A stretch of 64,000 bases of DNA from Metapseudomonas boanensis (GTDB taxonomy: Bacteria > Pseudomonadota > Gammaproteobacteria > Pseudomonadales > Pseudomonadaceae). Shown one piece after another: positions 41,813 to 63,998 of this stretch; the first letter of the stretch is position 1, and each line of letters opens with the position of its first letter. The stretch spans positions 372,001-436,000 of the forward strand of contig NZ_JAGTIS010000001.1 in assembly GCF_018704125.1 (NCBI RefSeq), in the 5' to 3' direction. A program made the translations under genes and the position numbers. The notes under the pieces are model-generated. The model saw only the letters and a list, made by a program, of their open reading frames with translations. It did not search any database and was not told the origin of the DNA.

Positions 41813-43783
41813 ATGCTTGTCCGACGCCCTGCCCGGGTCTTGCTGGCGCTCACGTTGCTGGCCCAGTCCATTACCGCTTCCGCTGCACCCTCCGCTAAGG
41901 ACGCAACCGAAATGACCCGGGCTTCCAACCTGCAATGGTTGCAGCGCTTACCCTTCGCCGATCGAGCTGACTTCGAGGCCGCACAGCGTGGCTTACTGGA
42001 GCGCTTCGATGGCATGGTGGACAACGGCAAAGGGCAGGCCGTGTGGGATCGCGGCACCTACGCCTTTCTCGATGGTCGCGAAGCCCCGGCGACGGTGAAC
42101 CCGAGCCTCTGGCGTATCGCCCAGCTGAATAACATGGCCGGGCTGTTCCAGGTCACCGAGGGTGTCTATCAGGTGCGCGGCCTCGATCTTGCCAACATGA
42201 CCCTGATCGAGGGCGAGAAGGGGCTGATCGTCATGGACCCGTTGCTCACGGTGGAAACCGCCCGGGCGGGCCTGGAGCTCTATTTCAAACATCGGCCACG
42301 TCGGCCCGTGGTGGCGGTGATCTACACCCATTCCCACATCGACCACTTCGGCGGCGTGCGTGGCGTGGTAGACGAGGCGGATGTCAAAGCAGGCAAGGTG
42401 CAGGTCATTGCGCCAAGTGGCTTCTTCGAGCATGCGGTCAGCGAGAACGTGCTGGCCGGCCCGGCCATGAAGCGCCGGGCGCAATACATGTATGGCTCGC
42501 TGCTGTCCCGAGGCGAACGCGGGCAGGTAGACGCGGGCCTGGGCAAGGGCGTGCCGACTGGTGGTACGGTGAGCTTGATAGCGCCTACCGTGGAGATCGC
42601 CCAGCAATTGGAGACACGCACCATCGACGGCGTCGAGATCGAGTTTCAGCTAACCCCGGGCACCGAGGCGCCGGCGGAGATGAACCTCTATTTTCCGCGC
42701 TTCAAGACCCTGTGCATGGCGGAGAACGCCACCCATGTGCAGCACAACGTGCTGACCCTGCGCGGCGCCCTGGTGCGTGACCCGAAGATATGGGCGCAGT
42801 ACCTGGACGAGGCGCTGGTTCGCTATGGCGACAAGGCCGAGGTGCTGTTCGCCCAGCATCATTGGCCCACCTGGGGCCAGCAGGAAATCCGGGAATACCT
42901 GGCCGATCAGCGCGACATGTACGCTTTCATCGACAGCCAGACGCTGCGCCTGATCAATCAGGGCCTGACCCCGACCGAAATCGCCCAGCGCCTCGATTCG
43001 CTGCCGCCCCGGCTGGCGAGCAAGTGGTATAGCCGCGACTATTACGGCTCCCTGAGTCACAACGTGCGTGCGGTCTACCAGCGCTACATGGGCTTCTACG
43101 ACGGCAATCCGGCCAACCTGAATCCCTTGCCCCCGGAAGATGCCGGCAAGCGCTACGTCGAAGTGATGGGTGGTGCCGACCAGGTCCTTGCCAACGCGCG
43201 GAAGGCGTTCGCCGCGGGCGACTATCGCTGGGTGGCCCAACTCACCAATCACTTGGTCTTCGCCCAGCCTGACAATGCCGAGGCCCGGGACCTTCAGGCC
43301 GACGCGCTGGAGCAGCTGGGCTACCAGAGCGAGAACGCGACCTGGCGTAACGCCTATCTGAGTGGCGCCCAGGAACTGCGCCAGGGCGTGGCCCTGGCCA
43401 AGGGCGGCAATGGTGCGCCGGACCTGGTCCGGGCGCTGACACCGTCGATGTTCTTTGACTACCTGGCCGTACGCATAGATGCGATGAAGTCGGCCGACGA
43501 AGACCTGCGGATAAACTGGCGTTTCACTGACCTCAATGAGGACTACGCGCTGACCCTGCGCAATGGCGTGCTGACACACCGCAATGGCGCCCGGCATGCC
43601 GCGCCGGAGATCAGCGTAGCCATGACCAAGGCGCTGCTGGACCGCATCGCCCTCAAGGAAACCGGCTTCCTCAAGGAGTCGACCATTGGTGGCATCACTA
43701 TCGAGGGTGGGCGTCTGAAGCTGCTCAAACTGCTGGGTGGGCTGGATGAGCCTAACGGGCAGTTCAATCTGGTCACCCCCTGA
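41813..43783 (+). CDS. Secreted metallo-beta-lactamase-fold alkylsulfatase (SdsA-like)
   Basis: 656-residue precursor with a signal peptide (about 1-24, ending ITASA). The N-terminal MBL domain has the dinuclear zinc motif THSHIDH (172-178) with further ligands near Glu285/Glu304 (ENATHVQHN) and His349 (AQHHWPTWG). A dimerisation domain and a C-terminal SCP2-like domain (about 530-656) follow, the SdsA1 architecture. SdsA1 hydrolyses primary alkyl sulfates such as SDS to alcohol and sulfate. AAGGA precedes the ATG at 41813; ATGs at 41804 and 41765 are less likely. Confidence 0.93.
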   Translation: MLVRRPARVLLALTLLAQSITASAAPSAKDATEMTRASNLQWLQRLPFADRADFEAAQRGLLERFDGMVDNGKGQAVWDRGTYAFLDGREAPATVNPSLWRIAQLNNMAGLFQVTEGVYQVRGLDLANMTLIEGEKGLIVMDPLLTVETARAGLELYFKHRPRRPVVAVIYTHSHIDHFGGVRGVVDEADVKAGKVQVIAPSGFFEHAVSENVLAGPAMKRRAQYMYGSLLSRGERGQVDAGLGKGVPTGGTVSLIAPTVEIAQQLETRTIDGVEIEFQLTPGTEAPAEMNLYFPRFKTLCMAENATHVQHNVLTLRGALVRDPKIWAQYLDEALVRYGDKAEVLFAQHHWPTWGQQEIREYLADQRDMYAFIDSQTLRLINQGLTPTEIAQRLDSLPPRLASKWYSRDYYGSLSHNVRAVYQRYMGFYDGNPANLNPLPPEDAGKRYVEVMGGADQVLANARKAFAAGDYRWVAQLTNHLVFAQPDNAEARDLQADALEQLGYQSENATWRNAYLSGAQELRQGVALAKGGNGAPDLVRALTPSMFFDYLAVRIDAMKSADEDLRINWRFTDLNEDYALTLRNGVLTHRNGARHAAPEISVAMTKALLDRIALKETGFLKESTIGGITIEGGRLKLLKLLGGLDEPNGQFNLVTP

Positions 43784-43833
43784 ATCTGGTGGGTGAGGCC
43801 CCGAGCGAGACACGTCGCGCGGGACCCCGATTC

Positions 43834-62763: not shown

Positions 62764-63998
62764 GCCTGGCCCTCCTGTACGGCAGCAAAGCACTGGCCGG
62801 CGGCGGCCAGCCGTTCGATTAGCGGTGCCGGTCGCCATCTGGCGCCGTGCCGCGCTTCCAGGGTGCGCAGGCGATCGAGGATTGCCGGCACACCTTCGCT
62901 GTCGGCCCAGGCCATCGGACCGGCCTTGTCGGCGGGGAAGCCGTAGCCATTCAGGTACACGAGGTCGATGTCGTGGCTGCTGGCGGCGATATTCCCTTCG
63001 AGGATCTTCGCACCTTCGTTGATCAGGGCCAGCAGGCAGCGCGTCTGGATTTCCGCGTTGCTCACCGGTCGTCGAACGAAGCCGAGACGGGTGGACTCCA
63101 CCTCGACCAGGCGATCGACTTCAGCATCCGACTGCGCCTCGCGGCTGCCCGACGCGTAGCGGTAGTAGCCCATCCCGGACTTCTGGCCGAATCGGCCGAG
63201 TTCGCAGAGACGGTTGTCAACCTGCACCGTGGGTTCGTCCTGGCCTTTGCCGGCCAGTCCGCGAGTGCGCCACTCCAGATCGATGCCCACCACGTCGTAC
63301 ATGCGGAACGGTCCCATGGCGAAGCCGAAGGTCTGGAGCGCGCCGTCAACCTGGGCTGGCAGGGCACCTTCGAGCAGCATTAGCCGCGCTTCCTTCACAT
63401 AGGTGCGCAACATGCGGTTGCCGATGAAGCCTTCGCAGTTGCCGGCGACCACGCAGACCTTGCCGATACGTTCGCCCAGGGCCCGGGCTGCCTGCAGCAC
63501 GGCGGGTGCGGTATGGGCGCCGCGCACGATCTCCAGCAGCTTCATGATGTGTGCTGGGCTGAAGAAGTGCAGGCCCAGCACTTGCTCGGGCCGCGCGGTG
63601 ACGGCTGCGATGGCGTCGATGTCCAGTGCCGAGGTGTTGCTGGCGAGGATCGCCGAGGGTTTCAGAGTGGCATCCAGGGTTCGGAAGATCTGCTGCTTGA
63701 GCTCGAGGTTTTCGTACACCGCCTCGATCACAAGATCCGCCGCGGCCAGCGCCGCATAGTCGCTGACCGGTTTCACATAGGCCCTGCGCCGGTTGACCTC
63801 GTCCGCTCCGATGCGGCCCTTGGTTATGTCATGCGCCCAGGTGTCCTCGATCATGCGCAGGCCTTGTTCGAGCATCTGCGGGTTGTTGTCTAGCCACAGC
63901 ACGGGAATCCCGGCGTTAGCCAAGCTGATGACGATGCCCCGGCCCATGGTGCCGGCGCCGATGACGGCGGCCTGCTGCAGGTTGAACGCATTGCTCAT
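62760..63998 (-). CDS. 3-hydroxyacyl-CoA dehydrogenase
   Basis: 412-residue NAD-dependent enzyme oxidising 3-hydroxyacyl-CoA to 3-oxoacyl-CoA. The Rossmann motif is AVIGAGTMGRGI (11-22); the catalytic His region is LGLHFFSPAHIMKLLE (133-148) with NRMLRTYVKEA. It is a stand-alone dehydrogenase, not fused to a crotonase domain as in FadB. It is the first gene of the visible leftward unit; the ATG at 63998 lies 2 bases from the window edge, so upstream genes such as a hydratase may lie outside. Confidence 0.94.
   Translation of the reverse strand: MSNAFNLQQAAVIGAGTMGRGIVISLANAGIPVLWLDNNPQMLEQGLRMIEDTWAHDITKGRIGADEVNRRRAYVKPVSDYAALAAADLVIEAVYENLELKQQIFRTLDATLKPSAILASNTSALDIDAIAAVTARPEQVLGLHFFSPAHIMKLLEIVRGAHTAPAVLQAARALGERIGKVCVVAGNCEGFIGNRMLRTYVKEARLMLLEGALPAQVDGALQTFGFAMGPFRMYDVVGIDLEWRTRGLAGKGQDEPTVQVDNRLCELGRFGQKSGMGYYRYASGSREAQSDAEVDRLVEVESTRLGFVRRPVSNAEIQTRCLLALINEGAKILEGNIAASSHDIDLVYLNGYGFPADKAGPMAWADSEGVPAILDRLRTLEARHGARWRPAPLIERLAAAGQCFAAVQEGQA

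What the first reader, a model, noticed from the sequence alone, without database searches (positions are those of the whole stretch)
41813..63998. Candidate undescribed catabolic locus linking an alkylsulfatase to CoA-dependent degradation
One region combines a secreted SdsA-like sulfatase, an exported serine hydrolase, DUF1302/DUF1329 envelope proteins, an MFS permease, an acyl-CoA synthetase, two different acyl-CoA dehydrogenases, 3-hydroxyacyl-CoA dehydrogenase, thiolase, thioesterase, an iron-type alcohol dehydrogenase and two LysR regulators. This gives ester cleavage, uptake, alcohol oxidation, activation and chain shortening. An enoyl-CoA hydratase and aldehyde dehydrogenase are not seen and may lie beyond the right edge. 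Substrates to consider are branched or cyclic alkyl sulfates, terpenoid esters and steroid-like compounds.
Basis: inference. Interest (0 to 1): 0.7.

Follow-up and report, generated by a model that had tools for sequence, protein, structure and literature searches.

The report
Alkylsulfatase and CoA-pathway catabolic gene cluster
In Pseudomonas-like bacteria a secreted enzyme that cuts sulfate off alkyl sulfates travels with, and appears to be switched on together with, genes that take up and activate an organic acid, which suggests an undescribed route for breaking down sulfate-ester (detergent-like) compounds.

Summary
The named genes are there and the claimed link is real. The sulfatase (72-100% identity) occurs in 21 of 298 sampled Pseudomonadaceae genomes; 20 of the 21 carry the acyl-CoA synthetase, always within 12.4 kb, in several gene orders. 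A 45-bp element before LysR1 recurs, as a weaker match, before the synthetase in 34 of 34 genomes and before the sulfatase, or the gene row that holds it, in 18 of 20. One LysR regulon probably contains both; this is predicted, not measured.

Corrections: (1) the right third (58-64 kb) has the gene order of the known P. putida PP_2046-2051 operon and lies near the cluster in only 5 of 20 genomes; (2) no enoyl-CoA hydratase was found within 42 kb to the right; (3) the core acyl-CoA dehydrogenase lacks the usual catalytic glutamate in 34 of 34, so it is probably no plain fatty-acid enzyme.

Best reading: exported sulfatase (and esterase) free an alcohol or acid; a carboxylate is imported, CoA-activated and oxidised. 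The substrate is unknown; C2-branched alkyl sulfates are my leading guess. Nearest precedent: the Psychrobacter slf operon.

The parts
41813..43783 (+). class III (metallo-beta-lactamase type) alkylsulfatase, Pisa1/SdsA-like, with a signal-like N-terminus (by eye); open frame from 41765
   Evidence: Alkyl_sulf_dimr 224 bits; best PDB 4av7/2yhe (sec-alkyl sulfatase) 833/825 bits, SdsA1 644 bits; THSHIDHFGG metal motif; the only Alkyl_sulf_dimr match in the genome
41674..41718 (-). predicted LysR1 operator upstream of the sulfatase (score 0.9)
   Evidence: third best site in window plus 6 kb; site before this gene in 13 genomes
43857..45251 (-). DUF1254/DUF1214 protein with hydrophobic N-terminus (by eye); optional member (7 of 32 regions)
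45422..45826 (-). DUF202 small membrane protein b
   Evidence: 35 bits
45828..46241 (-). DUF202 small membrane protein a
   Evidence: 61 bits; homologue in 25 of 32 regions
46338..46640 (-). deletion relic: start of a second DUF1302' gene joined to the end of its DUF1329' neighbour
   Evidence: residues 1-83 about 33-37% to DUF1302' starts (best E 2e-8), residues 63-98 up to 67% (E 1e-12) to DUF1329' ends in other genomes
46886..46930 (+). predicted LysR1 operator before LysR1 (score 75; one of the sites the matrix was built from)
46942..47913 (+). LysR1, predicted regulator of the core
47877..49184 (-). MFS permease; absent, with a Tct-type transporter present, in 3 related clusters
49248..50411 (-). 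acyl-CoA dehydrogenase ACAD1 (387 aa; open frame to 50567) with LTGT instead of the YEGT catalytic loop
50429..51976 (-). acyl-CoA synthetase (AMP-binding), first gene of ACS-ACAD1-MFS
52036..52080 (+). predicted LysR1 operator centred 82 bp before the synthetase start (score 5.1)
   Evidence: a site before this gene in 34 of 34 genomes (30, 4)
52194..53540 (-). DUF1329 protein
   Evidence: 466 bits
53543..55423 (-). DUF1302 protein (outer-membrane barrel by analogy with PP_0765, PMC10866462)
   Evidence: (536 bits)
55542..56888 (-). NylB-like / beta-lactamase-fold serine hydrolase with signal-like N-terminus (by eye), probable esterase; open frame to 57047
   Evidence: SMTK or SMSK, and YQN, in 14 of 14
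56973..57929 (+). LysR2, divergent from the hydrolase
58066..59250 (-). thiolase; homologue in 7 of 32 cluster regions, the window included
59268..59702 (-). 4HBT thioesterase
59748..60983 (-). iron-dependent alcohol dehydrogenase (PP_2049 position)
60973..62838 (-). large acyl-CoA dehydrogenase ACAD2 (PP_2048 position); best solved relatives 8r1e, 8pns, 6ijc
62760..63998 (-). 3-hydroxyacyl-CoA dehydrogenase HCDH (PP_2047 position); its divergent LysR3 lies just outside (L023:6076-6996)

Best explanation
A conserved, LysR1-controlled catabolic cluster for a sulfate-ester substrate, with two neighbouring modules. (1) Core, LysR1 regulon: exported sulfatase plus acyl-CoA synthetase, acyl-CoA dehydrogenase ACAD1 and MFS permease (with DUF202 membrane proteins nearby). 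(2) LysR2 module: exported serine hydrolase with DUF1302/DUF1329. (3) LysR3 module: a PP_2046-2051-type beta-oxidation operon. Proposed flow: DUF1302/DUF1329 help the amphiphile across the envelope; sulfatase (and, for ester forms, the hydrolase) release an alcohol or acid outside the cytoplasm; the resulting carboxylate enters by MFS (or a Tct transporter in some relatives); the synthetase makes the CoA ester; ACAD1 oxidises it; a hydratase from elsewhere, HCDH and thiolase finish. Shown: gene content, linkage, shared operator-like sites, active-site residues. Inferred: export, transport direction, order of steps, alcohol-to-acid oxidation by enzymes elsewhere, and the substrate. Leading substrate guess: primary alkyl sulfates branched at C2.
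For: Sulfatase and synthetase linked in 20 of 21 genomes within 12.4 kb. Linkage survives several gene orders and spans three genera. A matrix built only from LysR1-upstream sites finds a site before ACS in 30 of 30 plus 4 of 4, and before SdsA in 13, or before the hydrolase that heads the row BLAC-DUF1302-DUF1329-SdsA in 5, of 20. Controls: ACAD1 0/30, MFS 0/27, DUF1254 0/7; a matrix without genus g1 gives the same counts; 40 column-shuffled matrices give a mean of 0.9 (maximum 8) ACS hits and 0.6 (maximum 3) SdsA hits. Tyr and Gly at the two positions where PDB 2yhe and 4av7 differ, in 22 of 22 sulfatases aligned, two of them of 51-52% identity. In 3 of 5 synthetase-bearing g5 genomes with Tct genes in the cluster the MFS is absent. 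ACAD1 has Leu-Thr in place of Tyr-Glu in 34 of 34; a smaller residue for that Tyr is reported for alpha-substituted substrates (PMC11659651, passage). DUF1302/DUF1329 proteins are needed for Tween 20 use in P. putida (PMC10866462, passage).
Against: No expression or binding data. 14 of 34 synthetase-bearing genomes lack the close sulfatase (two of these have a 51-52% one), so the core must also work without it. No alcohol or aldehyde oxidase carries the operator in the window. The sites before ACS and SdsA in the window score low (5.1 and 0.9 against 75 for the LysR1 site, which is in the matrix); a fourth site passes the threshold at 18882 (-5.7), away from the cluster. 2 of 20 sulfatase genomes (G166, G294) miss; the threshold lets in 24 sites outside promoters and 5 before other cluster genes alone (LysR2, LysR3, THIOL, DUF202) in 895,650 bases. 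No LysR1 site lies before BLAC, THIOL or HCDH in the window. The window HCDH operon is not of the in-cluster paralogue clade.
Confidence: 0.7

Rival explanations
1. Substrate variant of the best reading: ordinary linear alkyl sulfate (SDS-type) degradation, with fatty alcohol oxidised elsewhere, then standard activation and beta-oxidation, as in the slf operon.
For: Tyr/Gly as in SdsA1 in the sulfatase; slf precedent with sulfatase plus CoA ligase, whose cloned module let E. coli decompose SDS (PMC10779009); DUF1302/1329 and Tween 20 (that Tween 20 is a laurate ester is general knowledge).
Against: ACAD1 lacks the catalytic Glu and the Tyr before it in 34 of 34; MFS or Tct carboxylate transporters are not expected for plain fatty acids (general knowledge); best solved relatives of the synthetase are a feruloyl-CoA synthetase and its like.
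Confidence: 0.3
2. The core is a module for a particular organic acid (branched, cyclic or aromatic); the sulfatase and the hydrolase are interchangeable front ends that release this acid or its alcohol from sulfate and carboxylic esters.
For: Core without the close sulfatase in 14 of 34 genomes, hydrolase in 12 of 34; MFS absent where Tct genes are present in 3 genomes; hydrolase of NylB type.
Against: 20 of 21 close sulfatases sit with the core, so the link is not casual; no acid is identified.
Confidence: 0.4
3. Sulfur scavenging: the sulfatase serves to obtain sulfate and the neighbours are unrelated.
For: Sulfatases can serve sulfur supply (general knowledge).
Against: Predicted shared operator with a CoA ligase and conserved linkage; no sulfate uptake or sulfonate gene among the 41.8-64 kb proteins scanned.
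Confidence: 0.07
4. Chance neighbourhood of unrelated catabolic genes.
For: The PP_2046-2051-type operon is near the cluster in only 5 of 20 genomes.
Against: Linkage and operator results for the core.
Confidence: 0.03

Closest known systems
slf operon (slfRCHSL), Psychrobacter plasmid pP62BP1 (PMC3346939, PMC10779009)
   Same: Class III alkylsulfatase with signal peptide, an acyl-CoA ligase and an own regulator; proposed to convert alkyl sulfate to acyl-CoA.
   Different: slf has a GMC alcohol oxidoreductase, an aldehyde dehydrogenase and an AraC regulator; here there are LysR control, MFS, DUF1302/1329, DUF202 and an unusual acyl-CoA dehydrogenase, and no oxidases under LysR1.
laoABCR of P. 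aeruginosa (named in PMC6107682, passages)
   Same: Later steps (dodecanol and dodecanal oxidation) of alkyl sulfate use.
   Different: No lao-type gene was seen among the window proteins scanned; I did not search the genome for lao homologues.
P. putida PP_2046-2051 operon (PMC7090098, PMC13390443)
   Same: Gene order of window 58-64 kb plus L023 LysR3: LysR / HCDH / ACAD / Fe-ADH / PP_2050-position gene (thioesterase here) / thiolase.
   Different: Here it lies beside the sulfatase cluster; four other genomes carry a separate paralogous copy inside the cluster. The P. putida sequences themselves were not compared.
Pisa1 (2yhe) and SdsA1 (2cfu) alkylsulfatases
   Same: Full-length match, metal motif, dimerisation and C-terminal domains.
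   Different: Overall closest to the secondary-sulfate enzyme Pisa1 but with Tyr/Gly as in SdsA1 at the two positions where 2yhe and 4av7 differ.
6-aminohexanoate-dimer hydrolase (NylB) family
   Same: Sequence match (182 bits to 4gb7) and SxxK motif.
   Different: Signal-like N-terminus, next to DUF1302/DUF1329; substrate unknown.
PP_0765/PP_0766 (DUF1302/DUF1329) of P. putida (PMC10866462)
   Same: A DUF1302 and a DUF1329 gene side by side.
   Different: Here with hydrolase and CoA genes; the link to Tween 20 is from the paper, not tested here.

Membership tests
class III alkylsulfatase (SdsA/Pisa1) | metallo-beta-lactamase, dimerisation and C-terminal domains; THxHxDHxGG | tested here: met
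class III alkylsulfatase (SdsA/Pisa1) | hydrolysis of primary or secondary alkyl sulfates | not testable with these tools
   residue comparison only
acyl-CoA dehydrogenase (ACAD1) | full-length family match | tested here: met
acyl-CoA dehydrogenase (ACAD1) | catalytic Glu in the YEGT loop, or at the isovaleryl/long-chain site | tested here: not met
   Thr at the first in 34 of 34 (30, 4) and Asn at the second in 30 of 30 (the second site placed by recalled numbering); the 7 solved relatives whose alignments were printed have Glu at the first, except that 1rx0 and 7p98 were listed but not printed
PP_2046-2051-type operon (58-64 kb) | gene order with divergent LysR | tested here: met
   against passages; sequences of P. 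putida itself not compared
PP_2046-2051-type operon (58-64 kb) | grouping with the stand-alone copies rather than in-cluster paralogues | tested here: met
   3 of 3 genes tried
slf-type alkyl sulfate operon | sulfatase with CoA ligase in one regulon | tested here: inconclusive
   linked and with a common predicted operator; not measured
slf-type alkyl sulfate operon | GMC alcohol oxidoreductase and aldehyde dehydrogenase in the operon | tested here: not met
   none among the proteins of 41.8-58 kb scanned
NylB / class C beta-lactamase-like hydrolase | SxxK and YxN motifs | tested here: met
   14 of 14 orthologues; motif definition recalled
LysR-type operator | conserved interrupted dyad bound by the regulator | tested here: inconclusive
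   TGCC-N10-GGCA in 15 of 27 LysR1 sites printed, by eye not in the ACS or SdsA sites; binding not testable

The most novel reading that the evidence does not exclude
A dedicated, LysR1-inducible pathway for primary alkyl sulfates branched at C2 (such as 2-butyloctyl sulfate): sulfatase makes the 2-alkyl alcohol, which is oxidised to a 2-alkyl acid, imported and activated, and ACAD1 oxidises the alpha-substituted acyl-CoA with a catalytic base at a new position, or by another reaction. [quoted passage not shown]
Probability: 0.2. Interest if true: 0.65.

Novelty: new variant of a known kind. Interest (0 to 1): 0.52.

Why it matters
Genes for the steps after the sulfatase are little known: PMC6107682 (2018, passages) calls the laoABC work in P. 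aeruginosa a first attempt to identify enzymes of the further SDS pathway. A conserved unit with a predicted common operator gives a ready list of downstream genes, a reporter assay for the inducer, and an acyl-CoA dehydrogenase without the usual base. It also puts DUF1302/DUF1329 and DUF202 proteins into a testable setting.

Tried and rejected
Rejected: one 22-kb pathway; hydratase just beyond the right edge; iron ADH as long-chain alcohol dehydrogenase. The ACAD1 model was poor (pLDDT 66), so no fold search was run on it. Alignment of ACAD1 with 7p98 (which I recall, unchecked, as a cyclohexene-carboxyl-CoA type enzyme) could not be printed because it never ranked in the best five. The first null for the operator was flawed: the random windows came from the same regions and included true sites, so its p values bottom out near 0.01-0.03; replaced. 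Of the 18 named loci fetched by the DUF1302 query, 4 have a sulfatase match near DUF1302 (L005-L008) and 14 do not. In some searches at most 4-6 candidates a genome were scored when more were found, so a miss in a genome is not absolute. Literature searches for a description of this cluster: (ranked lists, some capped); no listed title or abstract start describes it; subscription papers are not held.
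Full report
OBSERVATION.

LINKAGE. In a sample of 298 genomes of the family (drawn evenly from a larger group), the sulfatase at 72% identity or more was found in 21 (next best matches 62-63%) and the synthetase at 76% or more in 34. 20 of the 21 sulfatase genomes have the synthetase; from the listed coordinates the gap is at most 12.4 kb in all 20; only G024 lacks it. Two more synthetase genomes (G175, G236) carry a 51-52% sulfatase about 1.2 kb away. 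The hydrolase was found in 14 of 298 at E<=1e-100; 12 of these 14 have the synthetase nearby. The gene order differs between genomes: for example ACS-ACAD1-MFS, LysR1, DUF1302'-DUF1329', sulfatase in G004; hydrolase-DUF1302-DUF1329-sulfatase, then LysR1, MFS-ACAD1-ACS in G178; and a form with the PP_2047-like operon in the middle in G294. The genomes are related, so the 20 are not independent; linkage kept through rearrangement is the stronger point.

REGULATION. Upstream of LysR1 a 45-bp element is conserved. A matrix from the 26 gap-free of 29 LysR1-upstream sites was used to scan 32 regions (895,650 bases; 30 synthetase genomes plus G013 and G149) at a threshold of -12. Sites: before LysR1 in 28 of 29 genomes; before the synthetase in 30 of 30, centred 81-93 bp upstream (155 in G217); before the sulfatase in 13; before the hydrolase at the head of the row that ends in the sulfatase in 5 (G132, G139, G178, G181, G209; its start codon is not fixed, but the sites lie before its first aligned codon). 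That is 18 of the 20 linked sulfatase genomes; G166 and G294 miss, with scores of -17 and -18. Of the 109 sites, 24 fall away from these promoters (17 outside the query genes, 7 in coding sequence) and 5 lie before LysR2, LysR3, THIOL or DUF202 alone; 74 positions in 1,791,300 shuffled bases pass. With a threshold set to 30 background positions, control windows before ACAD1 (0/30), MFS (0/27) and DUF1254 (0/7) have none; a matrix without genus g1 gives the same counts (ACS 30/30, SdsA 13/20, LysR1 28/29); 40 column-shuffled matrices give on average 0.9 synthetase hits (maximum 8) and 0.6 sulfatase hits (maximum 3). The four remaining synthetase genomes, fetched later, also have the site. In the window itself the sites are at 46886 (score 75), 52036 (5.1) and 41674 (0.9); a fourth above the threshold is at 18882 (-5.7), away from the cluster, and the next is -13.9. 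The two weaker ones would not convince alone; the support comes from their place and their recurrence. No site lies before the hydrolase, thiolase or HCDH in the window, so those blocks are probably under LysR2 and LysR3.

RIGHT THIRD. HCDH, ACAD, Fe-ADH, thioesterase, thiolase with divergent LysR is the order of P. putida PP_2046-2051; its regulator and PP_2049 are needed for growth on 1,4-butanediol, 4-hydroxybutyrate and (R)-3-hydroxybutyrate (PMC7090098 and PMC13390443, passages). HCDH is found in 207 of 298 genomes. Within the fetched regions of the 20 linked genomes it is near the cluster in G000, G166, G190, G217 and G294. In trees of HCDH, ACAD2 and FeADH the window copy groups with stand-alone copies, while the four other in-cluster copies form their own clade. 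So the neighbourhood arose at least twice, once with a dedicated paralogue; in the window it may still be chance. Of 8 stand-alone loci read, 6 show HCDH to thioesterase with no thiolase match in the fetched stretch, one (L084) is cut at the contig end, and one (L087) shows only HCDH and thioesterase. A thiolase like that of the window is in the cluster in 7 of 32 regions.

ENZYMES. The sulfatase is nearest Pisa1, a secondary alkyl sulfatase, but has Tyr and Gly at the two places where 2yhe and 4av7 differ (22 of 22 sulfatases aligned). I recall that 4av7 is a Pisa1 double mutant changed towards SdsA1; no call confirms that. SdsA1 has Tyr and Gly there too and prefers primary sulfates (PMC3725421 passage). 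The serine hydrolase matches NylB-type hydrolases. The best solved relatives of the synthetase are 8weu/8wev (fatty-acyl-CoA synthase / feruloyl-CoA synthetase), then FadD5 and FadD13. ACAD1 has ILTGT or VLTGT where the solved relatives printed have a Glu (IYEGT, or GEGT in two), in 34 of 34 orthologues (30, 4), and Asn at what I take, from recalled numbering, to be the isovaleryl/long-chain base site, in 30 of 30. PMC11659651 (passage) says that the Tyr before that Glu is replaced by smaller residues in enzymes for alpha-substituted substrates, and that long-chain, isovaleryl and benzylmalonyl enzymes have Gly or Ala for the Glu. Thr is neither. An AlphaFold model was too weak to place another base.

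TRANSPORT. The five g5 genomes with the synthetase carry TctC and TctA genes in the cluster (TctB seen in four, and not looked for in G050); MFS is absent in G106, G118 and G168 and present as well in G160 and G050. This suggests that the compound imported across the inner membrane is a carboxylate.

RELIC. Window 46338-46640 joins the start of a DUF1302' gene to the end of a DUF1329' gene as found next to LysR1 in other genomes, a deletion of about 2.8 kb judged from those genomes. The intact DUF1302/DUF1329 pair of the window is of another type (33-38% and 41-49% to the lost pair's relatives).

READING. The best-supported statement is a conserved, probably LysR1-controlled cluster that couples an exported alkylsulfatase to carboxylate uptake, CoA activation and an unusual acyl-CoA oxidation. 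The nearest precedent is slf of Psychrobacter (PMC3346939 abstract and passages; PMC10779009 abstract and passages), which makes this a new variant of a known kind. C2-branched alkyl sulfates are a guess that fits the sulfatase residues and the ACAD1 loop.

Noticed in passing
window 49248-50411: Acyl-CoA dehydrogenase family with Thr for the usual catalytic Glu in 34 of 34 orthologues; may be a distinct enzyme class.
   Followed up: partly
window 46338-46640: Relic of a deleted second DUF1302'/DUF1329' pair next to LysR1.
   Followed up: partly
window 45422-46241: Pair of DUF202 membrane proteins; the first has a homologue in 25 of 32 cluster regions; function unknown, may be tied to sulfate or alkyl sulfate handling.
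   Followed up: partly
L077, L078, L081, L042-L043, L094: Tct transporter genes in g5 versions of the cluster, with MFS missing in three of five.
   Followed up: partly
L086 (G024): The one close-sulfatase genome without the synthetase has weak relatives of the iron ADH (36%) and of the aldehyde dehydrogenase (35%) within 8 kb of its sulfatase: a possible different sulfatase locus.
   Followed up: no
L087 (G217:C2): Stand-alone PP_2047-type locus seems reduced to HCDH and thioesterase, while the same genome has a fuller copy in the sulfatase cluster.
   Followed up: no
window 39964-40329: Two tandem copies of a tRNA-Glu/tRNA-Gly pair about 1.4 kb left of the sulfatase; a possible integration site, not examined.
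   Followed up: no
G002:C1:2721120-2807873: Four alkylsulfatase homologues (51-77%) within about 87 kb of one genome.
   Followed up: no
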